The notes beneath the pieces are model-generated. The model worked only from the letters and a program-made list of their open reading frames with translations, was not told the DNA's origin and did not search any database. Source: Phycisphaerae bacterium (GTDB taxonomy: Bacteria; Planctomycetota; Phycisphaerae; Sedimentisphaerales; Anaerobacaceae). From it: 38,453 nt of DNA. Position numbers and translations under genes: made by a program. Where the stretch lies: contig JAGOLX010000015.1 in NCBI GenBank assembly GCA_017993835.1, positions 1 through 38,453 of the forward strand, written 5' to 3'. Shown here piece by piece: positions 1-16,499 of this stretch. Positions within the stretch are counted from its first letter, which is position 1. Each line of letters starts with the position of its first letter.

Positions 1-1
1 C

Positions 2-100
2 GGCCAACGGATTCTCCTCTCGGTGACAACCGCGCATGGGGAACTGTGGGCGATGGAGAACTTTCTGCCGGCAGGTAGTGGAGCGAATGACGCGAAGTAA
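2..100 (+). CDS. C-terminal tail of a probable PD40 propeller protein (5' truncated by window edge)
   Basis: An open frame enters the window at base 2 and stops with TAA at 98-100, giving 32 residues. It begins DGQR-like (GQRILLSV) and continues with GELWAMENFLPAG. The pattern 'GQR-ILL-hydrophobic ... ELW' is how the last blade of a TolB/PD40-type beta-propeller usually looks, and the downstream sensor protein in this window carries about eleven blades of the same kind. The likely parent is therefore a paralogous propeller protein, perhaps another M56-PD40 sensor. The family call is inferred from a very short stretch. The other two frames are closed early or lack such a pattern. Confidence 0.5.
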   Translation, partial: GQRILLSVTTAHGELWAMENFLPAGSGANDAK

Positions 101-325
101 CGGTTGCCGCCTGCCAGTCGGTCCGGGCGACTCGCCTTGACGGCGTCCTGTCGAGGATGGATATCGAGGAGGCCCCGGCCAAGCTGGCGAAGCAGGGGTT
201 GAGTTTTGCGGGCACAAGTCTCTTGCCGGCCAAAATATAGCAGATGCTCAGGAAATTCAACTCGCCTGATTTGCCGGCCGCGAAAATCCCCCGCCGATTT
301 TCTTGAAAGAAATTTGATTTTGCCC

Positions 326-354
326 TTGCGTATTTGATTTAGATCAAATATAAT
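326..354 (+). promoter_or_regulatory. Sigma70-type promoter of the BlaI-family gene
   Basis: TTGCGT at 326-331 and a perfect TATAAT at 349-354 are separated by 17 bases. The expected transcription start is near 361, about 23 bases before the ATG at 384. The whole spacer is occupied by an inverted repeat (see the operator entry), which fits repression by occlusion. Confidence 0.8.
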
Positions 355-370
355 TATGGCAAATCAAATA
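331..370 (+). promoter_or_regulatory. Candidate autoregulatory operator (inverted repeats TATTTGAT/ATCAAATA)
   Basis: Arms TATTTGAT (331-338) and ATCAAATA (343-350) form a perfect 8-bp inverted repeat with a 4-base spacer, lying between the -35 and -10 elements. The half-site recurs as AAATCAAATA at 361-370, the exact reverse complement of 331-340, and as TTTGATTT at 313-320. The sites lie directly upstream of a BlaI/MecI-type repressor, a family known to bind palindromes in its own promoter. That this protein binds here is inference. Confidence 0.7.
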
Positions 371-383
371 CGGAGGTCTGCAT

Positions 384-803
384 ATGGGTAGATCGAAGCA
401 GCAGAAGGCCGGGCGGCGAAAGAAGACCACGACAGAACTCACCGAGGCCGAGTGGGAGATCATGAAAGTCGTATGGGAGAAGGAGCCCTGTGCGGCGGGG
501 ACCGTCCAAGAGGCCCTGGCCGCCACCCGGGACTGGTGCTACGCCACGGTCAAGCTCACGATGGACCGCATGGTCGAGAAGGGATTCCTGGAGATCGAGA
601 AGATCCGTAACCTGCAGCTATTCCAGTCCTGCATCAGCGAAGTGGAGGCCCGACGGGGAGAACTCCGCAAGATGCTCACGCGAGCCTTCGGCGGCACACT
701 GACCCCCATGCTGAAGTTCCTCATCGAGCATGAAGGTCTCTCACGGGAGGAAGCTGCAGAGCTTCGTGAACTGGTGAAGAAGGCGGGGAGGGGGGAAGAT
801 TGA
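384..803 (+). CDS. BlaI/MecI/CopY-family transcriptional repressor
   Basis: This 139-residue protein has the BlaI/MecI winged-helix fold. After a basic N-terminus it has LTEAEWEIMKVVW at about residues 17-30, then VQEALAA and the recognition-helix region with YATVKLTMDRMVEKGFL, followed by a C-terminal dimerisation part rich in charged residues (LTPMLKFLIEHEGLSREEAAEL). The length (BlaI about 126) and domain order match the family. The start at 384 is set by CGGAGG at 371-376, seven bases upstream. The next gene, 33 bases downstream, is an M56 (BlaR1-like) protease, so the pair is a repressor-sensor unit: when the protease fires, the repressor is expected to be inactivated. The promoter carries strong palindromes suited to autorepression. 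The target genes besides its own operon are not visible; there is no beta-lactamase nearby. Confidence 0.93.
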   Translation: MGRSKQQKAGRRKKTTTELTEAEWEIMKVVWEKEPCAAGTVQEALAATRDWCYATVKLTMDRMVEKGFLEIEKIRNLQLFQSCISEVEARRGELRKMLTRAFGGTLTPMLKFLIEHEGLSREEAAELRELVKKAGRGED

Positions 804-836: not shown

Positions 837-3800
837 ATGGTCGCGATCATCAACGAGTGTGTGAATGGCTTGAATCACCTCGGCAACGCATTCAGCCGGT
901 ACGCTGTCAGGGGCTTTCTGCAATCGGCGGTGCTGGTCATCGTGCTGTTCGGCATCGACCTGCTGCTGCGCAAACGGGTCCGTGCTGTCTTTCGATACTG
1001 CATCTGGCTTCTCGTGCTCGTAAAGCTGATCCTGCCGCCGACGCTTTCCCTGCCGACGGGGATCGGATACTGGGTTCCGGACCCTGTGCCCGCCCGCTTT
1101 ATTACGCCGGGGCCTTATGTGGATGTTGACCGGTCTGAAGACGTGGAGGGGCCTCTTTCGTCGCGTCCTGAACCGTCGGACGCCGTCCCTCCGGTCCAGT
1201 CTTCCGCAGCCGTAGTGGCGCCGGATGACCCTGTGATCCCTGCTGCGGTGAGTCTGACCCCGATCACCTGGAAGGCAATCGGTTTGCTGTTCTGGCTTGC
1301 AGGTGTGCTTGCGTTCGCGGTTGTGCTCGCCCAGCGGATGCGGTTTGTCAGCGGACTTGTCGCAGCGAGTAGGGCTGCACAAGGCCAATTGCTTGATTTA
1401 CTCGAAGCATGCCGCCGGCAGATAGGAGTCCGTGGGCGGGTCGAATTGCGAATCTCGGAGGCCTTGTCCAGCCCAGCCGTCTGCGGCCTGCTGCGACCTA
1501 CCATCCTGATGCCTGCCTCGCTGGTGACGAAGCTTTCGCCGAAGGGGCTTAAGGCGACCCTGACCCATGAACTGGCGCACATCAAGCGGGCCGACCTTTG
1601 GGTCAATGCCCTGCAGACAGTCCTGCAGGTCGTGTACTTCTACAACCCCTTCGTGTGGCTTGCCAACGCCATGATTCGCCGGACGTGCGAGGAGGCGGTG
1701 GACGAAACGGTCCTCGTGGCCCTCGGCGGGCAGGCGAGTGATTACAGTAACACCCTGATCAGCATCGGCGAGATGGCGTTCTGGAAAGCCGACTTCGGCC
1801 TGCGCCTGGTCGGCGTAGCGGAATCGAAACGAGCCTTGAAACGGAGGATCAAACACATGCTGACACGACCCATCCCCCAAAGTGCGAGAATCGGCGCCCT
1901 CGGCACCATCGCCATCCTTCTCATCGCGGCCGTCCTGCTGCCCATGGCCAGAGCCGAGAGATCGAACGAGCGGGCGTCCACGCCTTCCTCCCCGGCGGTG
2001 ACAGAGGCGAGCGAAACGACCTCGCCTGCTGAGGCGAATGATGTCATTGTTGACCCGAACACCGGAGTCAAGTTTGTGCTGGCCAAGACGTTCTCCGGGG
2101 CCAACAACGTGATCAGGTTTACCACCAAGCTGATTCTGTCGCCCGATGCGCGATTCCTGGTTTCTATCGGCGGCCTTGTAGTCCCGCTCGATGGAACAGG
2201 GCCGTTCCGCTGCACCGAGCGGGGTGATGCCCGCGACAGGGCGGTGTCTCCCGACGGGCGATACATCGCCCATGGAGGAAAGGCGGTCTGGCTGCAGCCG
2301 GTGTCCCCGGAGACGTTGCGGCCGAACGGTCCTGCGAAGAAGCTTCTGGACTTGAGAGGAGGACAGTTGGTGGGAAGGAACAATGGGAAAGGCCTCTACT
2401 GGACACGGGACTCACAGACTGTCTTCTTCCAGGCCTATGACGTGGAAGGCCGGTTCCACCCGTACGCTTTTTCGGCGGCGACCGGCGCGTCTGTCAGTTA
2501 CCCGGACGCCGCATCCGCGGGGCTGCCCTCTCCGGATGGAAAGTGCATTGCGTTGACCATTACTGACCCCGCAGGAGGATTTTGGGTCAAACCGATTGGC
2601 GAGGGCGCCGCACGGCTACTGGGCGAACGGCCACAGGGCGAACCGCGACCGCCAATGTGTTGGTCGAAAGATGGGCATTGGCTGATCGGAGCTCAAGTCG
2701 ACGGAACCGTTCGATTCGTGCGCTACCCTGAGGGCCAGGAGTACCTTGTCCCCTTGCCGAAGGAACTGGCGCACGACCTGGATGATTATTCTGGGACATA
2801 CTGCGCGGGGCCGTCTGCCGATGGGAGCAGGCTCTTCTTCTATCAAACAGGGTACACGGTCAAGTGGCGGATGAAGGTTGCGTCGGCACAAGGCGCGGCC
2901 CTCCGCGATCTGGACAGCGACACACGCTATGCGTTCAGACCCTTCCAATGGGCACGAGATGGAAAAGCAACATTTCAAACTGACTATCAGGTGTATCCGA
3001 AGCAACCGGAAACTGCCTTGCTGATGAGTCCGCTCTCCGGAGCGAAGCCGGCTCCGTTTGTCCTCATGCCTGGTGTCTCCGCCCGAGCCAGACCTCTGGC
3101 TGTATCTCCCGACAGCAAGTGGTTGCTGTTCGTCTCGCCCCAGGGATCCGGCAACAGGACGTTGGATTTGAACGTGATAAGCTTGTCAATGGCCGACCAC
3201 AGTGTGAGTGGACCAGCCACGCTGCTACTGCGCGTCACGCGGCCGGCGAGAGAAAGCTCACTTGCCCCGGCGTGGTCGCCCGATAGCACGCGGGTGGTAT
3301 TGGCCTGCAAGGCCGATCCTGCGGGCGAGGAAGACATCTGGGTCGTCTTCACGAATGGCACAGCGCCGATCCGTCTTACCCGAACGGCAGCGATTGAGCG
3401 CGACCTGAAGTGGTCGCCCGATGGGAACATGCTGGCCTTCATCTGCGATGACGGGGGTGCCGGGGAGCTGAAGGTGGTCCCGACTGCCGGCGGAGAAGCG
3501 GTCGTGATCCGCAGATGGGCTGTCGCGGATGTGCCGGAATGGGGGTGGTCGCCCGACGGCAAGTCTTTGACCATTGCGGAGGAGGACATGCTGGTGCGTC
3601 AGCCCTTGTCCGGCGGCAAGGCCGAGCCTATCGTCAACTTGAAGGAGTACGGAATTGAGAGCTTGGAATGGCAGGGGTGGAGCCCCGACGGCAGCCGACT
3701 CGCCCTGGCCTACGGCGAGCGCAACACCGAAGACCCGCTGGCTTCTTCGACGTACCTTCTGTTTGCACGCGTGGAAGGAGGACGCTTGGAGCAGACAGTC

Positions 3801-4625
3801 AAAGTGAGAGCGGATGGAGGTAATATGTACTATACGTGGTCCCCGGATAGCACGCACGTAGCTTACCTGTGCGAGGATGCGGTGCCGGTCAGGCCCGAGG
3901 GACGGCTCTATGCGGTGACCGTGGACGACATCGTGGAGAGAATCGAAGCGGGAGCGATTCCGCCCATCCGGCGAAAGACATCCGCACCCACCGCTGCAGA
4001 ATACCCATTCGAATCCATACCCACCGCGCAAGTTGAGCCCATCACGGGTCCTGTCTTCTCGGACAACTTTGACAATGGGCTGTCCAAGTACTGGCAGATT
4101 GTGCCTGGGAAGCCCGACGCATCACCTCCACCGGCCCATGCGGTCGAAGACGGTCAGTTGATGCTGTTGAATTCCAGTGCCCGCCTCAACCAGATAGATT
4201 GGGCGGACTACCTCGTGACCGTCCGTGTCTGCGTGAAGGAGGGGGCAGCCCCCAGGCAGGGAGGCGTAGCGATTTTCGCGCGGGCAACACCATCTAACTT
4301 CGGCATAGAGGGCGTGGATCAGTACACCTTCCTTGTCTCCCATCCAACAAGCTTGTTGTGGCTCGAACTCTACTATGCCAATGCCTCAGGCTCGCTCTCT
4401 GCGGCCGTTTTGAGCAGAAACCCCTGCACCCTGGTCCGGGACAAGTGGTACAAGCTGGCCTTCGAAGTCCGCGGTGAGCATTTGCGGGGATACGTGGATG
4501 ATAAGCTTGTGATTGAGGCGACGGACGCGCGGCTGTCCAAGGGGCCTGTATCGATCAACGCTGGGAGCTCCCCTGTGCTGTTCGACGATTTCAGTGTGCG
4601 GCGGCTGACATACAACGCTGACTAA
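837..4625 (+). CDS. M56 (BlaR1-like) membrane protease fused to a PD40 beta-propeller and C-terminal jelly-roll domain
   Basis: Start ATG 837 is preferred over an in-frame GTG at 822 because GGGAGG at 824-829 lies seven bases before it; the protein is 1262 residues. Residues about 20-375 form an M56 module: N-terminal hydrophobic segments, the zinc motif HELAH at 244-248, a following CEEAVDETVL segment typical of BlaR1 proteases, and a last membrane helix near 352-373 ending in MARA. The rest should lie outside the cytoplasmic membrane. Residues about 400-1055 hold roughly eleven SPDG/SPDS/WSKDG-type blades of a TolB/PD40 propeller (for example SPDGRYIAHGG, WSPDGNMLAF, WSPDGSRLALAY, WSPDSTHVAYLC). 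Residues about 1065-1262 start with FSDNFDNGLSKYWQ and resemble a LamG/DUF1080-like jelly roll, often carbohydrate binding. BlaR1 itself carries a penicillin-binding sensor; here that position is taken by the propeller. The neighbouring repressor gene makes a signalling role very likely; the ligand is unknown. Confidence 0.88.
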   Translation: MVAIINECVNGLNHLGNAFSRYAVRGFLQSAVLVIVLFGIDLLLRKRVRAVFRYCIWLLVLVKLILPPTLSLPTGIGYWVPDPVPARFITPGPYVDVDRSEDVEGPLSSRPEPSDAVPPVQSSAAVVAPDDPVIPAAVSLTPITWKAIGLLFWLAGVLAFAVVLAQRMRFVSGLVAASRAAQGQLLDLLEACRRQIGVRGRVELRISEALSSPAVCGLLRPTILMPASLVTKLSPKGLKATLTHELAHIKRADLWVNALQTVLQVVYFYNPFVWLANAMIRRTCEEAVDETVLVALGGQASDYSNTLISIGEMAFWKADFGLRLVGVAESKRALKRRIKHMLTRPIPQSARIGALGTIAILLIAAVLLPMARAERSNERASTPSSPAVTEASETTSPAEANDVIVDPNTGVKFVLAKTFSGANNVIRFTTKLILSPDARFLVSIGGLVVPLDGTGPFRCTERGDARDRAVSPDGRYIAHGGKAVWLQPVSPETLRPNGPAKKLLDLRGGQLVGRNNGKGLYWTRDSQTVFFQAYDVEGRFHPYAFSAATGASVSYPDAASAGLPSPDGKCIALTITDPAGGFWVKPIGEGAARLLGERPQGEPRPPMCWSKDGHWLIGAQVDGTVRFVRYPEGQEYLVPLPKELAHDLDDYSGTYCAGPSADGSRLFFYQTGYTVKWRMKVASAQGAALRDLDSDTRYAFRPFQWARDGKATFQTDYQVYPKQPETALLMSPLSGAKPAPFVLMPGVSARARPLAVSPDSKWLLFVSPQGSGNRTLDLNVISLSMADHSVSGPATLLLRVTRPARESSLAPAWSPDSTRVVLACKADPAGEEDIWVVFTNGTAPIRLTRTAAIERDLKWSPDGNMLAFICDDGGAGELKVVPTAGGEAVVIRRWAVADVPEWGWSPDGKSLTIAEEDMLVRQPLSGGKAEPIVNLKEYGIESLEWQGWSPDGSRLALAYGERNTEDPLASSTYLLFARVEGGRLEQTVKVRADGGNMYYTWSPDSTHVAYLCEDAVPVRPEGRLYAVTVDDIVERIEAGAIPPIRRKTSAPTAAEYPFESIPTAQVEPITGPVFSDNFDNGLSKYWQIVPGKPDASPPPAHAVEDGQLMLLNSSARLNQIDWADYLVTVRVCVKEGAAPRQGGVAIFARATPSNFGIEGVDQYTFLVSHPTSLLWLELYYANASGSLSAAVLSRNPCTLVRDKWYKLAFEVRGEHLRGYVDDKLVIEATDARLSKGPVSINAGSSPVLFDDFSVRRLTYNAD

Positions 4626-4669: not shown

Positions 4670-5383
4670 TCATTGGACGGCGGCGATGGCGTCCTTGAGG
4701 TCGAGCGTTCCCTCGTAGAGGCTCCGGCCGACGATCACGCCGGCGACGCGGATGGGAATGAGCTTCTTGATGTCGGCGGCCTCCTTGACGCCGCCGGAGG
4801 CGATGACCGGGGTTCTGACCGCGTCGACCAGCGCCGCGGTCCGCTCGATGTTCGGCCCGGTGAGCATGCCGTCTTTCGTGATGTCCGTGTAGATGATGGC
4901 CGCCAGGGGCAGCTTGTCCGCCTGGGCTGCGAACTCCAGCAAGGGTTGACTGCTGTCCTCCAGCCAGCCGTGCGTGGCCACCATGGACCCGCGGGCGTCC
5001 AGCCCGAGGACGAGCCGGCCCTTGAACCGGTACGCCATGTCGGAAAACCACTCGAAGTCACTGACCGCCTTGGTCCCGATGATAATCCGCGCGACGCCCA
5101 GGTCGATCAGCTCGCGGATGGAGGCCTCGTCGCGGATGCCACCGCCGACCTCGATCTTGAGAAGGCCCAACTCGGCGATCTCGGCGATGCTCGCGGTGTT
5201 TATGGGCCGTCCCTCCTTGGCGCCGTCGAGATCGACGATGTGCAGCCATCGGGCGCCGTCGTCGTAGAACCGCCGGGCCTGCTGGGCCGGATCGTCGTTA
5301 TACGTGATCTGGCGGTCGTACTGCCCCTGGATCAGTCGGACACATTGGCCGTCTCGCAGATCAATGGCGGGGATCACATCCAT
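4670..5383 (-). CDS. hisA: 1-(5-phosphoribosyl)-5-[(5-phosphoribosylamino)methylideneamino]imidazole-4-carboxamide isomerase
   Basis: This 237-residue TIM-barrel protein catalyses the Amadori rearrangement of ProFAR to PRFAR, the fourth step of histidine biosynthesis, in the cytoplasm. The start is MDVIPAIDLRDG with catalytic D8; the second catalytic aspartate is D129 in LGLDAR. Phosphate-binding signatures are IEVGGGIR, TDITKDGM and VIASGGV. The length matches the family (about 240-245). AGGGA lies roughly eight bases before the ATG. No other his genes adjoin it. It converges on the M56 gene with a 44-base gap and diverges from the nucleoside hydrolase gene, so it is transcribed alone here. 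HisF is a homologue of similar size, but the IDLRDGQCVRLIQG opening is typical of HisA. Confidence 0.96.
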   Translation of the reverse strand: MDVIPAIDLRDGQCVRLIQGQYDRQITYNDDPAQQARRFYDDGARWLHIVDLDGAKEGRPINTASIAEIAELGLLKIEVGGGIRDEASIRELIDLGVARIIIGTKAVSDFEWFSDMAYRFKGRLVLGLDARGSMVATHGWLEDSSQPLLEFAAQADKLPLAAIIYTDITKDGMLTGPNIERTAALVDAVRTPVIASGGVKEAADIKKLIPIRVAGVIVGRSLYEGTLDLKDAIAAVQ

Positions 5384-5400
5384 AAGCCATTCCCTATTGA

Positions 5401-5490
5401 TGATTGACGATTGATGATTTATGATTCAGCATCATGCCATACGGCATGATAAACCGTGAGTCGTGAGTCGTAAATCATAAATTGCCGGGA
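5401..5490. repeat. Palindromic intergenic segment between divergent genes
   Basis: Nested inverted repeats sit between hisA and the nucleoside hydrolase. Outer arms are ATTTATGATT (5417-5426) and AATCATAAAT (5473-5482). An inner perfect 8-bp hairpin is ATCATGCC (5431-5438) with GGCATGAT (5443-5450). Short direct repeats GATTGA/GATTGATGAT and GTGAGTCGTGAGTCG flank them. Because the genes diverge this is not a terminator; it could be an operator region or a mobile palindromic repeat. Confidence 0.6.
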
Positions 5491-5498
5491 GATAAACG

Positions 5499-6515
5499 AT
5501 GGTGGATTCATTTCGGGTTCCTGCAGGCGCCGTGGCGGCGGTCCTGCTGGCGGCGCTGGCCATGTCCGGGTCCGCGTACGCCGGTGCCAGGCCGGTCGTG
5601 CTCGACACGGATATCTGCGATGACATCGACGACACGTGGGCCCTGGCCGTGCTGCTGCAATCGCCCGAGCTGGACTGCAAGCTCGTCACGACCGCGGTCG
5701 GGAATACCGAGGACAAGGCCCAGGTCGTCGCCCAGTTCCTCGACCGGGTCGCACGCAGCGATATCCCCATCGGCATCGGGGTCAGGCAGGGCAGCGGCTC
5801 GCACCGCCAGATCGCCTGGGCGCGGGACTACGATCTGACCTCCTACCCGGGCAAGGTCCACAAGGACGGCGTGCAGGCCCTCATCGACACGATCATGAAC
5901 TCGCCGACCCGCGTCACGCTGATCGCGCTGGGCCCGCTGCCCAATATCGCGGAGGCCCTCCGTCGCGAGCCGCGGATCGCGGAAAAAGCGGACTTCGTCG
6001 GGATGCACGGCAGCGTCTTCGTCGGCTACGGCGGGGCGGACCATCCTGACGCGGAGTACAACGTCAAACAGGACGTCGCGGCGGCCCAGAAAGCCTTCAC
6101 CGCCGCCTGGCCCATGACGATCACGCCGTTAGACACCTGCGGACTGGTCCAGCTCACCGGCGACAAATACCAGCGGGTGCTCAAGCGAGACAGCGCCGTC
6201 ACCAGGAATCTGATGCAGAACTACCGCCAGTGGTACCGAGACGGCTTTCAGGACCGCAAGGACCTCAGCGAGGCCGATCTGGCCCGCGAAGTGGACGGGA
6301 AGCTCGCTACCAGCAGCACCACCCTGTTCGACACGGTCGCGATCTACCTGGCGGTCAATCCCGAGTTGGCCGAGGTTCGGGAAGTGCCCCTCCGCGTCAC
6401 CGACGATGGCTTCACGCGAGTGGAGGAAGGCGCCAAGAAGATCCGTTGTGCGGTGAAATGGAAGGACCTCGGCGGGTACGAGGACTGGCTCGTGAAGAGG
6501 CTGACCGGGAACTGA
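5499..6515 (+). CDS. Secreted nucleoside hydrolase (inosine-uridine preferring type)
   Basis: The enzyme family cleaves the N-glycosidic bond of ribonucleosides to give ribose and a free base. The 338-residue protein has an N-terminal signal peptide (hydrophobic residues about 10-24, likely cleavage after AYA near 28). The calcium-binding motif follows immediately as VLDTDICDDIDDTWAL (D36, D38, D41, D42, D44, D45), in the longer DTDIxxDIDD form seen in a subgroup of the family. Later signatures are TLIALGPLPNIAEAL, GMHGSV and AEYNVKQDVAAAQ, the last matching the substrate-binding N...D segment. GGGAG at 5488-5492 supports the start. It is the first gene of an apparent operon with rbsK (41 bases downstream) and rbsBAC. 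Export plus this context suggest that nucleosides are split outside the cytoplasm and the ribose imported. Preference for a particular nucleoside cannot be read from the sequence. Confidence 0.92.
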   Translation: MVDSFRVPAGAVAAVLLAALAMSGSAYAGARPVVLDTDICDDIDDTWALAVLLQSPELDCKLVTTAVGNTEDKAQVVAQFLDRVARSDIPIGIGVRQGSGSHRQIAWARDYDLTSYPGKVHKDGVQALIDTIMNSPTRVTLIALGPLPNIAEALRREPRIAEKADFVGMHGSVFVGYGGADHPDAEYNVKQDVAAAQKAFTAAWPMTITPLDTCGLVQLTGDKYQRVLKRDSAVTRNLMQNYRQWYRDGFQDRKDLSEADLAREVDGKLATSSTTLFDTVAIYLAVNPELAEVREVPLRVTDDGFTRVEEGAKKIRCAVKWKDLGGYEDWLVKRLTGN

Positions 6516-6556
6516 CGGTCCCTGACTGTCCCGATTCAATGAGTCAAGGATCCAAC

Positions 6557-7489
6557 ATGGAAGAGAACGTTCCGAACATCGTAGTCGTCGGCAGCTCGAA
6601 CATGGACCTGGTCGTGAAGTCGTCGCGGATTCCGATCCCCGGCGAGACGATCCTGGGCGGCGATTTCCTCATGGTCCCGGGCGGCAAGGGGGCCAACCAG
6701 GCGGTCGCGGTGGCCAAGCTCGGCGCCCGCGTACACTTCGTTGCCCGGCTCGGCAACGATGTCTTCGGGCGCAAGTCCCTCGACAACTTCCGCCTGGAGG
6801 GACTGGACACGACGTATGTGAGCCTGACCTCCGACGCACCCTCCGGCGTGGCGCTCATCACCGTGGACGAGGCGGGCAACAACGCGATCGTGGTCGCCCC
6901 CGGCGCCAACGGGAGACTCTCGCCCGAGGACGTTCGGCGGGCCGCGGATGCGATCCGATCCGCCGGCGCGGTCGTCGCCCAGCTCGAGGTGCCCCTGGCG
7001 ACCGTCGAGTGCGCCGCCGAACTCGCCCGGGAAGCGGGCGTTCCCTTCATCCTGAATCCGGCGCCCGCCCAGCCATTGACCCGGGCGCTGCTGGAGAAGG
7101 TGGCCGTCCTGACGCCCAACGAGAGCGAGGCGCGAATTCTGACGGGGATCGAGGTCGTGGATGAGAAATCCGCCCGCAAGGCGGCGCAGAAACTGGTGCG
7201 GGGCGGCGCCAAGGCCGCGATTGTCACGATGGGCGCGAAAGGCTTCTTGCTGGCAGACGGGACCACGATGGAATTCGTCCCTGCGATTCGCGTCAAGACG
7301 GTCGATGCCACCGCGGCGGGCGACGCCTTCACCGGCAGTCTGGCGGTCGCTCTGGCGCTGGGCCAGGATCTTCGCGAGGCGACCCGCTTCGCCAACTGGG
7401 TGGCGGCATTCTCCGTCACCCGCCTGGGGGCCCAGCCCTCAATGCCCACGCGACTCGAGCTGGAAGAGTTTATCGCGGCCAATGCGTGA
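6557..7489 (+). CDS. rbsK: Ribokinase
   Basis: This PfkB-family sugar kinase of 310 residues (E. coli RbsK 309) phosphorylates ribose to ribose 5-phosphate with ATP in the cytoplasm. Visible signatures are VVGSSNMDLVV at the N-terminus, VPGGKGANQAVA (sugar and lid region), NPAPAQPL, LTPNESEARILTG, and the ATP/anion-hole motif DATAAGDAFTGS containing the catalytic aspartate (AAGD). Start ATG 6557 is chosen over ATG 6539 because AAGGA at 6546-6550 lies six bases before it; the reading frame extends further upstream but overlaps the hydrolase gene there. It lies between the nucleoside hydrolase and rbsB, 23 bases before the latter. Confidence 0.95.
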   Translation: MEENVPNIVVVGSSNMDLVVKSSRIPIPGETILGGDFLMVPGGKGANQAVAVAKLGARVHFVARLGNDVFGRKSLDNFRLEGLDTTYVSLTSDAPSGVALITVDEAGNNAIVVAPGANGRLSPEDVRRAADAIRSAGAVVAQLEVPLATVECAAELAREAGVPFILNPAPAQPLTRALLEKVAVLTPNESEARILTGIEVVDEKSARKAAQKLVRGGAKAAIVTMGAKGFLLADGTTMEFVPAIRVKTVDATAAGDAFTGSLAVALALGQDLREATRFANWVAAFSVTRLGAQPSMPTRLELEEFIAANA

Positions 7490-7512
7490 TTCCTGGGAGA
7501 TAGGAGAACGGA

Positions 7513-8454
7513 ATGAGCAAGGCAAAGTTGTGGATGTGGCGAGGTTTGGCGGTGCTTGCGGTTCTATGTCTGATCGGCGGCTGCAAGAAGAAGGACGACA
7601 GGCCGCAGGTCGTTCTGCTGATGAAGTCGCTGGCCAATGAGTTCTTCCAGACCATGGAGGACGGCGCGAAGGCCCACTACGAGCAGCATAAGAACCGCTA
7701 CGCCCTGAAGGTCGTGGGCATGAAGAATGAGACGGACGTCGCCGAGCAGATCCGCAACGTCGAGCTGGCCATTGCCCAGGACGTCAACGCCATCGTGATT
7801 GCGCCCGCGGATTCCAAGGCCCTCGTCCCGGTCTGCAAGAAGGCGATGGACGCGGGCATCGTCGTCGTCAACATCGACAACAAGTTCGACGAGGGCGTGC
7901 TCGCGGACAAGGGGGTGAAGATCCCCTTCGTCGGCCCGGACAACCGCCAGGGCGCCAAGCTGGCGGGCGTCTACCTGTCCACGAGACTCCAGAGCGGCGA
8001 CAAGGTCGCGATCATCGAAGGGGCTCCCAATGCGTTCAACGGCATCCAGCGGAAGATGGGCTTCGAGGACGCGATGCTCGCCAGCAACCTGAACATCGTC
8101 AGTTCGCAGACGGGGTACTGGGAGACCGACAAGGCCCTTCCCATCGCCGCCGCCCTGATCAACGAGCATCCGGATCTCAAGGCGATTCTGTGCGCCAACG
8201 ACAGCATGGCCCTGGGCGCGGTGACCGCGGTGAAAGAGGCCGGCAAAACCGGCGCGATCCATGTGATCGGGTTCGACAACATCGCCGCCGCGAGGCAGTT
8301 GCTCAAGGACGGCAAGATCCTGTGCACCGTGGATCAGCACGCGGACAAGATCGCCCAGGGCGGGATCGATTGCGCCCTGGAGATGCTCAAGACCAAGGTC
8401 CCGCCGGTGGACAGGCAGACCCCGGTCAAACTCGTCACAGCGGAGATGCTCTGA
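7513..8454 (+). CDS. rbsB: Ribose ABC transporter, substrate-binding lipoprotein
   Basis: This is a 313-residue periplasmic-binding protein of the Peripla_BP_4 (ribose/galactose) type. The N-terminus is a lipoprotein signal: LWMWRGLAVLAVLCLIGGC, with the acylated cysteine at residue 24, followed by a lysine-rich tether. The mature part opens with a first strand VVLLMKSLANEFFQTMEDGAK, then NVELAIAQDVNAIVIAPADS, IPFVGPDNRQGAKLAG, AILCANDSMALGAVTAV and HVIGFDNIAAARQLLKDG, all hallmarks of ribose-type binding proteins. TAGGAG at 7501-7506 sets the start. It delivers sugar to RbsC/RbsA encoded next. A lipoprotein anchor instead of a free periplasmic protein differs from E. coli. Exact sugar (ribose versus another pentose) is inferred from rbsK and the hydrolase. 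Confidence 0.93.
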   Translation: MSKAKLWMWRGLAVLAVLCLIGGCKKKDDRPQVVLLMKSLANEFFQTMEDGAKAHYEQHKNRYALKVVGMKNETDVAEQIRNVELAIAQDVNAIVIAPADSKALVPVCKKAMDAGIVVVNIDNKFDEGVLADKGVKIPFVGPDNRQGAKLAGVYLSTRLQSGDKVAIIEGAPNAFNGIQRKMGFEDAMLASNLNIVSSQTGYWETDKALPIAAALINEHPDLKAILCANDSMALGAVTAVKEAGKTGAIHVIGFDNIAAARQLLKDGKILCTVDQHADKIAQGGIDCALEMLKTKVPPVDRQTPVKLVTAEML

Positions 8455-8587
8455 CGCCTGAGGGAAAACTCGAAATCCGAAATCCGAAACAAATCCAAAG
8501 GCTCGAAGCTCAAATGACTGAAACGCTATCGCGCCTCCGATGCTCGGGCGTTTCGAGTTTCGTGCTTCGGATTTGGCGCATTGTCCT
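8455..8587. repeat. Imperfect inverted repeat of the CGAAATCCGAA type inside the rbs operon
   Basis: The 133-base gap between rbsB and rbsA is filled by an imperfect long palindrome. The left part runs CTCGAAATCCGAAATCCGAA from about 8468; the right part near 8548-8577 is its approximate reverse complement (GTTTCGAGTTTCGTGCTTCGG). A related half copy (GCACGAAATCCGAAACAAG) occurs at about 19662-19680. The layout suggests a dispersed repeat that inserted into the operon. It may fold in the mRNA and reduce expression of rbsA/rbsC relative to rbsB. Confidence 0.6.
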
Positions 8588-10123
8588 ATGGATCCCACGA
8601 CCGATAGACTGCTCGTCGCGACCGGTGTGACGAAGACCTTCCCCGGCGTTCACGCGCTCCGCGGGGTTGATTTCGACCTGTGCGCGGGCGAGGTCCATGC
8701 CCTGGTCGGGGAAAACGGCGCGGGCAAGAGCACGCTCACGCGGATCATCGCAGGTGTGGAGGTCCCCGACTCTGGGCGGATGCTGCTGGCGGGTCAGTCC
8801 TACGAGCCCAGGTCCCGCGCCGACGCGGAGGCCCGCGGCGTCCGCATGGTCATGCAGGAGCTGAACCTGATCGGCACTCTGAGCGTGGCCGAGAACATCT
8901 TCATCGAGCGGCTCCCGAACCGGCTCGGCTTCATCGATTACCACAAGCTCCACGAAGCCGCACGCCAGGTCATGTCAAAGGTTGGCTTGGGCGACCTCGA
9001 CCCCGCTACGCCCGTCAGTTCCCTGGGCATCGGCCGACGCCAGATGGTCGAGATCGCGGCGGGCCTGTCCCGACAGTGTCGCGTTTTGGCTCTCGACGAG
9101 CCCACCGCCTCGCTGACGGACAGTGAAGTGGAACTGCTCTTCGCCCAGATCCGCCGGCTCAAGGCCGAGGGCGTCGGGATCATTTACATCTCGCACCGGA
9201 TCGAGGAGGTGCTGCGGATCTCGGACCGCGTGACCGTCCTTCGCGACGGGCAGGTCGTCGGCACGCGGGCGGCGAGCGCGCTGGCTCCCCAGGCTGTCAT
9301 TCACAGGATGGTCGGCCGGGACCTGGGCAGCGAATGCCTCGCGCCGAGCGGCGGCAGGGGAGCGGTCGCCCTCCGCGTTGTCGGCCTGACCTGTGGCGAC
9401 CGGGTCCGCGACGTCTCCTTCGAGGCATTTCGGGGCGAAGTGCTCGGCATTGCGGGCCTGATGGGTTCCGGGCGGACCGAGACCATGCGGGCGATCTTCG
9501 GCGCCGATATCCCCGAGGCCGGCTCCGTCTGCCTGCATGGCGACAACGAGCCCGCCTGTATCCGAAATCCCAGCGACGCGGTCCGCCAGGGGATTGCCTT
9601 GCTGACCGAAGACCGCAAGGAACAGGGTTTGTTCCTCTCTCTGCCTGTGCGGGCGAATGTCTCGATCACTCGTCTGGGGGCCCTGAGCCGGCTCGGGTGG
9701 ATCGATTCCTCGCAGGAGCGCCGAGTCGCGAGTGACTACGTCAAATCGCTCGGCATCAAATGCTCGTCCGTCGAGCAGGCCGCAGGGCAGCTCAGCGGCG
9801 GCAACCAGCAGAAAGTCGTGATTGCCAAGTGGCTCTACCGGAACTGCGATGTCCTGATCTTCGACGAGCCGACGCGGGGGATCGATGTGGGCGCCAAGTT
9901 CGAGATCTATCGCCTGCTGGCGGACCTCGCGGCCAGGGGCAAGGCCATTCTCTTCGTCTCCTCGGACCTCAAGGAGCTGATGGCGATCTGCAACCGCATC
10001 CTCGTCCTGTCGGCGGGAAAGGTCGCGGGGACCTTCGACCGCGGCGCCTGGAGCGAGGACGCGATCATGGCCGCCGCATTCAGCGAGTACGTCAACAGTG
10101 GAGTCCTGCAACATGGCGGATGA
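8588..10123 (+). CDS. rbsA: Ribose ABC transporter, double ATP-binding subunit
   Basis: This 511-residue protein with two ABC domains powers ribose import. The N-terminal domain has Walker A GENGAGKST (41-49), a degenerate signature SSLGIGRRQMVEIA and Walker B VLALDEPTASLT. The C-terminal domain has a degenerate Walker A (GLMGSGRTE), signature LSGGNQQKVVIAKWL and Walker B LIFDEPTRGIDVG. This asymmetry is normal for the RbsA/MglA family (E. coli RbsA 501). The frame is open further upstream to 8540, but that part lies in the repeat filling the rbsB-rbsA gap, so ATG 8588 (MDPTTDRLLV) is chosen; no good ribosome-binding site is visible, perhaps because the repeat displaced it. The end overlaps rbsC by 11 bases. 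Confidence 0.94.
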   Translation: MDPTTDRLLVATGVTKTFPGVHALRGVDFDLCAGEVHALVGENGAGKSTLTRIIAGVEVPDSGRMLLAGQSYEPRSRADAEARGVRMVMQELNLIGTLSVAENIFIERLPNRLGFIDYHKLHEAARQVMSKVGLGDLDPATPVSSLGIGRRQMVEIAAGLSRQCRVLALDEPTASLTDSEVELLFAQIRRLKAEGVGIIYISHRIEEVLRISDRVTVLRDGQVVGTRAASALAPQAVIHRMVGRDLGSECLAPSGGRGAVALRVVGLTCGDRVRDVSFEAFRGEVLGIAGLMGSGRTETMRAIFGADIPEAGSVCLHGDNEPACIRNPSDAVRQGIALLTEDRKEQGLFLSLPVRANVSITRLGALSRLGWIDSSQERRVASDYVKSLGIKCSSVEQAAGQLSGGNQQKVVIAKWLYRNCDVLIFDEPTRGIDVGAKFEIYRLLADLAARGKAILFVSSDLKELMAICNRILVLSAGKVAGTFDRGAWSEDAIMAAAFSEYVNSGVLQHGG

Positions 10124-11075
10124 CGTGAACAAGGGCAATGTACGCGGGCTGCTCGCCGACTACCTGGGCATGGCGATCGCGCTGGCGGTGCTGATCGGCG
10201 TCTTCGGCGTCTCCGCGGACAACTTCCTCACCCAGGCCACTTTCCGAACGCTCGCCAACCAGGTCGCGGACATCACGATCGCGGCGGTGGGCATGACGTT
10301 CGTGCTGATTATCGCCGGGATCGATCTGTCGGTCGGCTCGGTGATGGCGCTGGCGGGAGCGATCCTCGGCATTGCCATGGTCCACTGGGGCCTGCCTCTG
10401 CCGATCGCGGTGTTCCTGTGCCTGCTCGTCGGTCTGGCCTGCGGCGCCGCCAACGGTTTCATCGTCGTCCGCTGGAGGCTGCCCTCGTTCATCGTTACGC
10501 TCGGAATGCTCGAAGCGGCCCGCGGCGCCGCCTACCTGGCGACGGATTCCCGCACGATCTACATCAACTCCATCGACGCGATCACGCAGACGGTGGCGCT
10601 GGGCCTGTCGGCGCCGTTCTTCCTGGCGATTCTGACCGTGGTACTGGGCCAGTTGACCCTGTCTCGCACCGTGTTCGGGCGGTACTTGATCGCCATCGGC
10701 ACGAATGAGGAGGCGGTTCGGCTCTCGGGGATCAACCCTCGTCCGTACAAGCTGGCGGTCTTCGCTCTCTCGGGTTTGCTGACGGGCGTTGCGGCGGTGA
10801 TCCAGACGGCCCGCATGTCGTCAGCGAACCCGAACGCTGCGCCCGGCTTCGAACTGCAGGTGATCGCCGCGGTGGTCATTGGCGGGACCAGCCTGATGGG
10901 CGGGCGGGGCTCGGTCGTCCGGTCGTTCTTCGGCGTTCTTATCATCGCGGTCCTCGGCGCGGGCCTGGCCCAGGTCGGCGCCCAGGAGTACACCAAGCGT
11001 CTCATCACCGGCTGCGTCATCGTGGCCGCCGTAATCCTCGACCAGTACCGCCACCGCGCTCGACGCAGATCCTAG
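10113..11075 (+). CDS. rbsC: Ribose ABC transporter, permease subunit
   Basis: This 320-residue integral membrane protein (E. coli RbsC 321) belongs to the BPD_transp_2 family. It has about eight to ten hydrophobic segments, with family signatures DITIAAVGMTFVLIIAGIDLS VGS, ANGFIVVRWRLPSFIVTLGM, AIGTNEEAVRLSGIN and AAVVIGGTSLMGGRGSV. Start ATG 10113 overlaps the end of rbsA; GGAG at 10100-10103 lies nine bases upstream. An in-frame GTG at 10098 is the alternative. It closes the nucleoside hydrolase-rbsKBAC operon. No rbsD (ribose mutarotase) is present and no dedicated rbsR-type regulator adjoins. Confidence 0.94.
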   Translation: MADDVNKGNVRGLLADYLGMAIALAVLIGVFGVSADNFLTQATFRTLANQVADITIAAVGMTFVLIIAGIDLSVGSVMALAGAILGIAMVHWGLPLPIAVFLCLLVGLACGAANGFIVVRWRLPSFIVTLGMLEAARGAAYLATDSRTIYINSIDAITQTVALGLSAPFFLAILTVVLGQLTLSRTVFGRYLIAIGTNEEAVRLSGINPRPYKLAVFALSGLLTGVAAVIQTARMSSANPNAAPGFELQVIAAVVIGGTSLMGGRGSVVRSFFGVLIIAVLGAGLAQVGAQEYTKRLITGCVIVAAVILDQYRHRARRRS

Positions 11076-13691: not shown

Positions 13692-13955
13692 TCCAGACCG
13701 GCTGGTCGGTGGGCCGCATCTGCGCCCGCCCACGCGATGAGTGGACGCCGAGTCCCGTGGGGACGGTGACTCCGCATGTCCCTGGGGTATGCGCAAAGAC
13801 CCCTCGCCTTTTTCCCCGTTACAACTCGTGCCTGGTGGGGCACATTCATACCAGTGTGAAGGCAGTACTCCGCCATGGGGCCGGATGCCCGCGAGATGGG
13901 ATGGGGCCTGCCTGCGAATCCTCTTGTCATGGTAGACAATCGTAGGGAGCTGAGT

Positions 13956-16499
13956 ATGAAATGTGGGGAGAACAGTCTGAGAGCCGTCTTTGCCATCGTT
14001 GCATCCATGTTGTTCTGGGGGGTGATCTGTGTCTTGCCGGCGGCGGCTTCCATCACGACCCTGGGTGATGTCGATCCTTCGTACGACGACTCCGATCCCT
14101 GGATTCTGTCGGCGGAGCTTCTGATCGGAGGCTACGCCGAGGGCAGTGTCGCCGTCTCTGCGGGTTCGCAGGTGCTGCTCGCGTGGGATCCCGAAAGCGG
14201 GCTGGGCGGCGATCTGTTCGTCGGGGGATCGGGCAACGGGACGCTCCAGATCGGTCCTGAGGGGTGGGTCGTCAGCGACGCCGCGTCCATCGGTCACGAC
14301 GCGCGCGGAGTGGGGGAAGTCGTTGTCTCCGGTTCGCACGCTCTGTGGGAGAACGACTCTGCGATTCAGATCGGCGCATCGGGGACCGGTCGTCTGGGGA
14401 TCAACGACGGGGGGGCGGTCGCGACCGCGGACGCCACCGTTGCTGCCATGCGGAACAGCGAGGGCATGGTCGCGGTGGAGGGAACGAGTTCCGTTCTGGA
14501 AGTCGAGCAGAAGCTGATCGTCGGCGCGCTGGGGAACGGGAGCCTGTCCATCTCGGACGGCGGTACTGTGACGAGTTACTCGGCCTCTATCGGCGACCAG
14601 GCGGGCGGGGAAGGCTCCGTGATGGTCCAGGGCGCCGGTTCGCTCTGGCAAAATGCGGATGCCCTGTACGTCGGCAGGGCCGGCCAGGGAGAGCTGACGA
14701 TCTCGCAGGGCGGTTGCGTCACGAGCCGTGGCGCGACCATCAAGGGCCAGGAAGAGGGCGCCGCGGTCGTCACCGTGACCGGGACGGGTTCGCGATGGAC
14801 GAACACAAACATGCTGACCCTAGGGGACCGTGCCGATCCTGGCGTGCCGGCCGCGGGGGCTCGCGAAGGCTATGGAACGATCGCGGTCCGCGATGGCGGC
14901 ACCGTCGAGACCGGCGACATGGTCGTCTGGGAGAGCGGCGTCCTCACCGGCGACGGCGTCTTCGAAGCGTCCGAAATCACCAACCATGGCATCATCCGCC
15001 CGGGCAACTCGATCGGCACGCTGACCATCGAAGGCGACCTCACCATGGGCTCGAACGGAGTTCTGGAAGTGGAGATCGACAATAGCGGCAACAGCGACAG
15101 GTTGTTGGTCGCCGGTTCCATGTACCTCCCCTATGACGGGGTGACGCCCGTTCCGCTGGAGACCCTGACGGGCCCACGTGAGTACACCATCGTCGAGGCA
15201 AGTAGCGTCGAGATCCCCATACACACCTGGGTCTGGCCGTCAGACCCGGGTCTGATCTATTCGACCATCAGGACCGACAGCGAGGCAGAATCGGTCCTCT
15301 TGCGTGTGACTGTGTTGCCATTCGATGACCCGAACGTCGTGCAGACCGATGCCCAGTGCTCGCTCGGTTCGGCGTTGCAACAAGTCGCGGACGCGGGCGG
15401 CAACGACATCACCACGGCTTTGCAGCAGCTCCAGACTGGCGATGCAGTCCGCGCCGCTTACGATCAGCTCAGTGGCCAGACGATGCCTTCGCTGGCTCCG
15501 GTCACCGTGGCCGGCGCGACGCGGCACGTGGCCATGATCTCCGGCCGGCTGCGAAGTCCCGCTGCGAGCTTCGCGGATGCCGGCCTGTTCACATCCGACG
15601 CGGTCGGCGTCGATACGGGCCGGTACCTGTTCGCTCTGGGCAGCGGCACGCCGGCTTTTGGCGACAGCCCCTGGGGTTTCTGGGGCAAGGGCTACGGCTT
15701 GTTCGGCGACCGCGACAGCGAGTCTGGCGTCCCGGGCTACGACTACGCGGTCTACGGCGCCGGCTTCGGCCTGGACTACCGCTTCACCGACCGCCTGCTC
15801 CTGGGCGTCACGGCCGGCTACTCGGACGGCGATATCGATTACTCCGGCTCGCGGGACAGTTCCGAGGTTTCCGCCACTCACGGCGGCTTCTACGGCAGCT
15901 ACGAGACCTCTCGCTGGTACCTCGACTCGATCGTGACCTATGCGGACCTCGACTACGAGACGCAGCGGTATGTGGACCTCGTCTCCGAGCGTCTCGATGG
16001 CGACTCCTCGGGCGATACGCTCACTGGCTACCTCGAAGTGGGCCTGAATCGCTGGATTTCCCAGCGGACGCTCCTCCAGCCTCTGGCGGCGGTGCAATTC
16101 TCCACGCTGAGCATCGACGGCTTCACAGAGTCCGGCGGCGACAGCGCCCTGACCTTCGACGACCAACGGTACGACTCCTGCAAGGGCTCGCTCGGCGCCA
16201 AGCTGAGCCGGCAGCTCTGGGATCACGGCGACGGCCGCAAGGTGGCCCTTGATCTTCGCGCACGCTGGGTCCACGAGTTCGGCGATACGAAGGCGAGCCT
16301 GGATGCTGCCTTCGCGAGCGACCCGTCTGCCGCCTTCCGCGTCAGCGATGAGTCGATCTCCCGCGACAGCGCCGTCCTCGGCGCCGGCCTGGACGCCTGG
16401 TTCACGCGTCAGACCCGCCTGTTCCTCGACTACGGCACGGAGTTGAACGCCGACAGCACGACCCACCTGGTCAGCGCCGGTCTCGAGCATCGCTGGTGA
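13956..16499 (+). CDS. Autotransporter (type Va) with T5SS/PEP-CTERM-associated repeats
   Basis: This 847-residue outer-membrane/surface protein has a signal peptide at the N-terminus (LRAVFAIVASMLFWGVICVLPAAAS). Residues about 92-290 contain four tandem repeats of about 49 residues with the pattern GxGxLxIxxGGxV...AxIG...GxVxVxGxxSxWxNxxxLxVG, the T5SS/PEP-CTERM-associated repeat. The segment near 325-375 (GDGVFEASEITNHGIIRPGNSIGTLTI) is a typical passenger end. Residues about 570-847 form the autotransporter beta-barrel: it starts with WGFWGKGYGLFGD, has alternating aromatic strands (YGAGFGLDYRFTDRLLLGVTAGYS) and ends with the terminal aromatic motif LEHRW. AGGGAG at 13944-13949 selects ATG 13956 over the upstream ATG 13875. 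The barrel secretes the passenger across the outer membrane. The passenger's ligand is unknown; the repeat type suggests a beta-helix adhesin. Confidence 0.92.
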   Translation: MKCGENSLRAVFAIVASMLFWGVICVLPAAASITTLGDVDPSYDDSDPWILSAELLIGGYAEGSVAVSAGSQVLLAWDPESGLGGDLFVGGSGNGTLQIGPEGWVVSDAASIGHDARGVGEVVVSGSHALWENDSAIQIGASGTGRLGINDGGAVATADATVAAMRNSEGMVAVEGTSSVLEVEQKLIVGALGNGSLSISDGGTVTSYSASIGDQAGGEGSVMVQGAGSLWQNADALYVGRAGQGELTISQGGCVTSRGATIKGQEEGAAVVTVTGTGSRWTNTNMLTLGDRADPGVPAAGAREGYGTIAVRDGGTVETGDMVVWESGVLTGDGVFEASEITNHGIIRPGNSIGTLTIEGDLTMGSNGVLEVEIDNSGNSDRLLVAGSMYLPYDGVTPVPLETLTGPREYTIVEASSVEIPIHTWVWPSDPGLIYSTIRTDSEAESVLLRVTVLPFDDPNVVQTDAQCSLGSALQQVADAGGNDITTALQQLQTGDAVRAAYDQLSGQTMPSLAPVTVAGATRHVAMISGRLRSPAASFADAGLFTSDAVGVDTGRYLFALGSGTPAFGDSPWGFWGKGYGLFGDRDSESGVPGYDYAVYGAGFGLDYRFTDRLLLGVTAGYSDGDIDYSGSRDSSEVSATHGGFYGSYETSRWYLDSIVTYADLDYETQRYVDLVSERLDGDSSGDTLTGYLEVGLNRWISQRTLLQPLAAVQFSTLSIDGFTESGGDSALTFDDQRYDSCKGSLGAKLSRQLWDHGDGRKVALDLRARWVHEFGDTKASLDAAFASDPSAAFRVSDESISRDSAVLGAGLDAWFTRQTRLFLDYGTELNADSTTHLVSAGLEHRW

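What the first reader, a model, noticed from the sequence alone, without database searches (positions are those of the whole stretch)
837..4625. BlaR1-like protease whose sensor is a beta-propeller and jelly roll instead of a penicillin-binding domain
The M56 part keeps HELAH and the CEEAVDETVL segment, and sits next to a BlaI repressor. The extracytoplasmic part is about 650 residues of PD40 blades plus a carbohydrate-binding-like jelly roll. This suggests a one-step signalling device in which a polymer or glycan ligand, not a beta-lactam, triggers proteolytic derepression. No beta-lactamase is nearby.
Basis: partly seen in the sequence, partly recalled or inferred. Interest (0 to 1): 0.75.

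Follow-up and report, generated by a model that had tools for sequence, protein, structure and literature searches.

The report
Membrane switch with swapped outside sensor
This gene pair looks like the bacterial switch that senses penicillin, but its outward-facing part is a different, interchangeable module, and the only strong binding site found for its repressor lies in front of the pair itself; it suggests that a known switch type has been reused many times for other signals.

Summary
Window 837-4622 encodes a 1262-aa Peptidase_M56 protein with all BlaR1 catalytic residues, four predicted membrane helices, a PD40/TolB-type propeller region (13 blade motifs, probably two propellers) and a C-terminal jelly roll. 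A BlaI-family repressor gene lies directly upstream. The genome holds 15 blaI genes, all directly upstream of an M56 gene. None of those M56 proteins has a penicillin-binding domain; their C-termini differ (PD40, FG-GAP, LRR, secretin, SecDF-head/beta-helix, redoxin-like). BlaI and M56 diverge together (r = 0.93 over 27 pairs), while the window-type propeller has moved between M56 lineages and also occurs without M56 in secreted-looking proteins. The promoter carries a conserved dyad operator with compensating changes in relatives; no second strong copy was found in this genome or two relatives, and four other pairs' operators are equally private. Most likely it works like BlaR1/BlaI: an outside signal activates the cytosolic protease, which cuts BlaI and induces its own operon. 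The glycan ligand is untested: the jelly roll is dispensable and the ligand unknown. Derepression of other genes finds no support. New variant of a known kind.

The parts
326..354 (+). promoter of the pair: TTGCGT (326-331), 17-bp spacer, TATAAT (349-354)
   Evidence: sequence; same layout with better -35 boxes (TTGACG, TTGACA, TTTACA) in relatives
331..350 (+). operator dyad TATTTGATTTAGATCAAATA inside the promoter spacer
   Evidence: no second strong copy in the genome; footprint with compensating arm changes in relatives
361..370 (+). second operator half-site AAATCAAATA
   Evidence: conserved in relatives
384..803 (+). BlaI-family repressor, 139 aa; F112 at the likely P1' position
   Evidence: PF03965 E 1e-27; MecI alignment E 3e-16
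837..4625 (+). M56 membrane protease with propeller and jelly-roll ectodomain, 1262 aa
918..1853 (+). Peptidase_M56 domain (aa 28-339): H244ELAH248, D253, E285xxxD289, Y303, R337
1890..1958 (+). TM4 (aa 352-370) followed by MARAE, a candidate signal-peptidase site
   Evidence: hydropathy; small residues at the site conserved in most of the window-type clade; BlaR1 is cut at the equivalent place
2031..3956 (+). PD40/TolB-type propeller region (aa 399-1040), probably two propellers
4035..4622 (+). jelly roll (aa 1067-1262), 3keto-disac_hyd/CBM66-like

Best explanation
A BlaR1/BlaI-type transmembrane switch with a different ectodomain. Shown by sequence: an M56 protease with the complete BlaR1 catalytic set, a co-diverging BlaI repressor next to it, a dyad operator inside their own promoter, and an exchangeable ectodomain (propellers plus optional jelly roll). 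Inferred: the ectodomain lies outside the cytoplasmic membrane as in BlaR1; an unknown signal, more likely read by the propeller than by the dispensable jelly roll, shifts the ectodomain and membrane helices; the protease frees its active site and cuts BlaI near F112; BlaI leaves operators 331-350 and 361-370; and the blaI-M56 operon is induced, a self-reinforcing response. A signal-peptidase cut after TM4 may release the ectodomain and reset the system. No second target gene was found.
For: All BlaR1 catalytic residues named in PMC9834060 have counterparts. BlaI and M56 distances correlate, r = 0.934 over 27 pairs, 0 of 5000 permutations reaching it. All 15 blaI genes of the genome sit upstream of M56 genes. 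Footprinted operator with compensating dyad change, no second strong site in three genomes. Ectodomain swapping: G005a has a propeller 72% identical but M56 32% and BlaI 34%; M56 and propeller trees conflict at 100/100 support; G026a propeller dS 0.60 while M56 dS is saturated. The propeller also occurs without M56 in secreted-looking proteins.
Against: No ligand, cleavage or expression data. The scissile site in BlaI is placed only with a one-residue gap. Closed autoregulation without a visible target leaves the output unclear. Topology rests on hydropathy and homology; the model of the membrane part failed (pLDDT 43) and the ectodomain model is only partly confident (pTM 0.41).
Confidence: 0.62

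Rival explanations
1. The ectodomain is the cargo, not the sensor: BlaI and the protease form a self-limiting cassette that sets how much of the propeller/jelly-roll protein is made and exported; signal peptidase then cuts after TM4 and sheds it.
For: No strong operator copy outside the pair's own promoter for this and four other pairs; ectodomains of very different kinds, some unlike sensors (secretin, redoxin-like); secreted-looking propeller homologues without M56; small-residue site after TM4.
Against: Retention of the whole protease and repressor in every intact copy, and the direct precedent of BlaR1, favour signalling; BlaR1 itself is also shed.
Confidence: 0.22
2. One reading: a carbohydrate sensor that derepresses polysaccharide-related or other target genes in trans when glycan binds.
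For: Jelly roll related to CBM66 and 3-keto-disaccharide hydrolases; conserved neighbourhood with nucleoside hydrolase, ribokinase and a ribose-type transporter.
Against: Jelly roll dispensable; no operator found at other genes or before the neighbouring operon.
Confidence: 0.12
3. The pair is an autoregulated remnant without present signalling role.
For: No visible target gene; an apparent M56 pseudogene elsewhere in the genome.
Against: dN/dS 0.09-0.50, intact catalytic residues in all 27 pairs aligned, conserved operators.
Confidence: 0.04

Closest known systems
BlaR1/BlaI and MecR1/MecI (Staphylococcus, Bacillus licheniformis; structures 8exp-8ext, PMC9834060)
   Same: M56 gluzincin catalytic set, four TM, adjacent BlaI-family repressor, operator in own promoter, small-residue signal-peptidase-like site after TM4
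   Different: Propellers and jelly roll in place of the penicillin-binding sensor; longer Pro-rich loop between TM2 and TM3; no beta-lactamase or transpeptidase target found
The 14 other BlaI-M56 pairs of this genome
   Same: Same BlaI-M56 cassette, own operator where looked at
   Different: Other C-termini (FG-GAP, LRR, secretin/STN, SecDF-head/beta-helix, redoxin-like, another PD40); the window one is the propeller + jelly-roll type
TolB and S9-peptidase PD40 propellers
   Same: PD40 repeats and fold of the second propeller
   Different: No TolB N-terminal domain and no peptidase domain; far below the TolB cut-off
CBM66 of a levanase (4azz, 4b1l, 4b1m) and PF06439
   Same: Sequence similarity in the last third of the jelly roll
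   Different: Only 62 of 200 positions align; sugar-binding residues not checked

Membership tests
Peptidase M56 (PF05569) | Profile match over curated cut-off | tested here: met
   161 bits against 31
BlaR1/MecR1 beta-lactam sensor | HEXXH, EXXXD, and Asp210, Tyr261, Arg294 equivalents | tested here: met
   H244ELAH248, E285xxxD289, D253, Y303, R337
BlaR1/MecR1 beta-lactam sensor | Four TM, N-out and C-out | tested here: inconclusive
   Four hydrophobic segments at the expected places; membrane model failed
BlaR1/MecR1 beta-lactam sensor | BlaI/MecI-type repressor gene adjacent | tested here: met
   PF03965 at 384-800
BlaR1/MecR1 beta-lactam sensor | C-terminal penicillin-binding transpeptidase-like sensor | tested here: not met
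   No such Pfam or NCBIfam match in the C-terminus; blaR1 equivalog 124 bits against 400; the genome's PF00905 matches lie on contigs without M56 matches
BlaR1/MecR1 beta-lactam sensor | Controls a beta-lactamase or PBP2a gene | tested here: not met
   None among ten downstream genes; no other strong operator in the genome
BlaR1/MecR1 beta-lactam sensor | Protease cleaves BlaI on signal | not testable with these tools
   needs biochemistry
Penicillinase_R / BlaI (PF03965) | Profile match over curated cut-off | tested here: met
   96.9 bits against 22.6
TolB (TIGR02800) | Equivalog cut-off | tested here: not met
   52.6 bits against 343, propeller part only
PD40 beta-propeller (PF07676) | Profile match over curated cut-off, propeller fold | tested here: met
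   44.5 bits against 20.9; VIA Z 19.8 for the second propeller
CBM66 / carbohydrate-binding jelly roll | Fold and sugar-binding residues | tested here: inconclusive
   E 5e-7 to levanase CBM66 over 62 positions; 3keto-disac_hyd borderline

The most novel reading that the evidence does not exclude
The BlaI-M56 cassette is a portable, self-contained autoregulatory device: each copy has its own operator and controls only itself, and the ectodomain it makes (sensor or exported cargo) is exchanged between copies like a cartridge; one genome holds 15 of them.
Probability: 0.35. Interest if true: 0.72.

Novelty: new variant of a known kind. Interest (0 to 1): 0.52.

Why it matters
BlaR1/BlaI is studied almost only as a penicillin-resistance switch (own knowledge). 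Here the same protease-repressor cassette occurs 15 times in one genome with unrelated outside parts and, for the five operators searched, no strong site outside the pair's own promoter. That makes it testable whether M56 receptors are general outside-to-inside proteolytic switches, what change in an ectodomain is enough to trigger them, and whether some serve to make and export the ectodomain itself. The natural swaps (related propellers on two M56 lineages in one genome) are ready-made chimeras.

Tried and rejected
The scan of named genomes with the propeller profile returned only generic PD40 proteins; my own M56 profile and a BlaI BLAST found neither family in those 80 loci. Orthologues from whole-genome searches were not handed to the structure predictor because its stated rule does not list them; the ectodomain was therefore modelled with 7 remote homologues (pTM 0.41) and the membrane part without an alignment (useless, pLDDT 43). 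A looser operator pattern (16 bases, 2 mismatches) gave 17 hits against 9 for the reversed control: no convincing regulon. The region before the nucleoside hydrolase operon has no operator-like pair. G417 looked like loss of BlaI and protease, but an N gap cuts it, so it says nothing. Papers: nothing found in the library on M56 proteins with propeller sensors; the library lacks most subscription journals. The organism's name was not obtained; a planctomycete is only my guess. Plasmid search gave only distant BlaR1/M56 matches.

Full report
What is there. The window encodes a two-gene unit on the + strand: a 139-aa BlaI-family repressor (384-803) and, 33 bases later, a 1262-aa protein (837-4625). 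The large protein has a Peptidase_M56 domain (aa 28-339, E 4e-47), PD40 repeats (E 1e-11) and a C-terminal domain related to 3-keto-disaccharide hydrolases (E 1.6e-5, 1.3 bits under the cut-off; its orthologue in G005 passes). It aligns to the solved BlaR1 (8exs, E 1e-4). With the residue roles given in PMC9834060, every named catalytic residue has a counterpart: H201/E202/H205 = H244/E245/H248, D210 = D253, E242/D246 = E285/D289, Y261 = Y303, R294 = R337.

Topology. Four hydrophobic segments at the BlaR1 positions with a basic first loop predict N-out/C-out, the protease on the cytosolic face and the ectodomain outside. Independent support: four homologues of this propeller occur in proteins without M56; the three whose N-terminus is visible start with a signal peptide or hydrophobic leader (two read in full also have TPR-like repeats). 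The single-sequence model of the membrane part was not usable, so topology is inferred, not shown.

Ectodomain. Thirteen SPDG-type motifs between aa 435 and 1002, over about 640 residues, suggest two propellers. The model built on eight sequences is confident only for the second one, which matches the prolyl endopeptidase propeller (2bkl, Z 19.8, rmsd 4.7, 295 residues); Foldseek's list includes tandem-propeller proteins such as 1nr0. The profile search finds TolB and S9 peptidases. The jelly-roll profile finds the levanase CBM66 (E 5e-7), but only over 62 of 200 positions. The jelly roll is absent from G026a, G026b, G007b, G008 (C319), G391b, G032a and G260, so it is an accessory.

Not a single oddity. 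The genome has 17 M56 matches and 15 blaI genes; all 15 blaI genes lie directly upstream of an M56 gene on the same strand. Pfam on the C-termini: PD40, PD40 + jelly roll, FG-GAP, LRR (two), secretin/STN, SecDF head + beta-helix + HEAT, redoxin-like, others unassigned; no transpeptidase domain. The genome's three transpeptidase matches lie on contigs C38 and C79, which carry no M56 match. The window starts at a contig end whose first 127 bases equal the end of contig C26, which places another blaI-M56-propeller pair immediately upstream; G005 has three such pairs in tandem, and G391 an M56 gene just upstream of its pair.

Co-divergence and swapping. Over 27 pairs, BlaI and M56-core distances correlate with r = 0.934; the best of 5000 permutations was 0.446. 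The ectodomain does not follow. In G005 one protein has a propeller 72% and a jelly roll 68% identical to the window's, but an M56 of 32% and a BlaI of 34%. M56 sequences fall into two clades (100/100), yet propellers from both clades intermix: G005a sits in the window's propeller clade (100/100) and G032a is sister to G391b (100/100). For G026a the propeller has dS 0.60 while the M56 part is saturated, which points to module exchange. G032a joins a propeller like that of C26 and one like the window's in one protein. Against G005b, dN/dS is about 0.09 for BlaI, 0.30 for M56, 0.50 for the propeller and 0.38 for the jelly roll: all constrained, the outside part least.

Family range. The diagnostic N-terminal propeller profile matched 14 of 89 genomes of the family, 21 places, and nothing outside the family among 397 genomes sampled from the class. 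Of the 21, 17 are fused to M56; two of these are cut by a contig end or an N gap, and the other 15 all have blaI directly upstream; the remaining four are the M56-free proteins.

Operator. TATAAT (349-354) lies 17 bp from TTGCGT (326-331), and the spacer holds the dyad TATTTGATTTAGATCAAATA (331-350); a further half-site lies at 361-370. The arrangement is conserved in relatives, and in G024 and G008 both arms change together (TTTGAT..TCAAA to TTCTAT..AGAA), as expected of a protein-binding dyad. Within two mismatches the 18-base pattern occurs in this genome only here and in G005 only at its promoter; in G007 the exact match is at its promoter and three scattered places have two mismatches. 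A looser pattern gives little beyond its control. The operators of four more pairs (C26, C17, C84, C9), read from their own promoters, are equally private. The simplest circuit is closed autoregulation; weak or diverged sites cannot be excluded.

Mechanism. By homology with BlaR1: a signal outside, movement of membrane helices, release of the loop that blocks the active site, cleavage of BlaI near F112, induction of the operon. Only the parts list, the partnership and the operator are shown; signal, cleavage and output are inferred. A MAR[A/G]E-type site after TM4 in most of the window-type clade sits where BlaR1 is cut by signal peptidase, so shedding is plausible and a cargo reading remains open.

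Neighbourhood. Convergent hisA follows the pair, then nucleoside hydrolase, ribokinase and a ribose-type ABC transporter. hisA with nucleoside hydrolase and/or ribokinase lies beside the propeller gene in G005, G358, G008 and G032, but no operator was seen upstream of that operon.

Verdict. Observation confirmed; interpretation right in outline (BlaR1-like transducer, foreign ectodomain, BlaI partner), unproven in the ligand and unsupported on derepression of other genes. It works like BlaR1/BlaI; it is a member of the M56 and BlaI families; it is not a member of the beta-lactam-sensing BlaR1 family.

Noticed in passing
window 1-127: The window begins at a contig end; its first 127 bases repeat the last 127 of contig C26, which ends in another blaI-M56-propeller pair, so the two pairs are probably in tandem.
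   Followed up: yes
window 4670-11072: hisA (convergent), then nucleoside hydrolase, ribokinase and a ribose-type ABC transporter; parts of this order next to the propeller gene are conserved in four relatives.
   Followed up: partly
window 13875-16496: 874-aa ORF with T5SS/PEP-CTERM repeats and an autotransporter-like C-terminal match.
   Followed up: no
L021:1861-11931 (G000:C12): A 3357-aa M56 protein with SecDF-head, HEAT and right-handed beta-helix domains behind one BlaI-M56 cassette.
   Followed up: partly
L028:489-6113 (G000:C111): M56 protein carrying secretin and STN domains, odd for a membrane sensor.
   Followed up: no
G000:C18:63365-64453: M56 gene with internal stops and no BlaI: apparent pseudogene of the window-type clade.
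   Followed up: no
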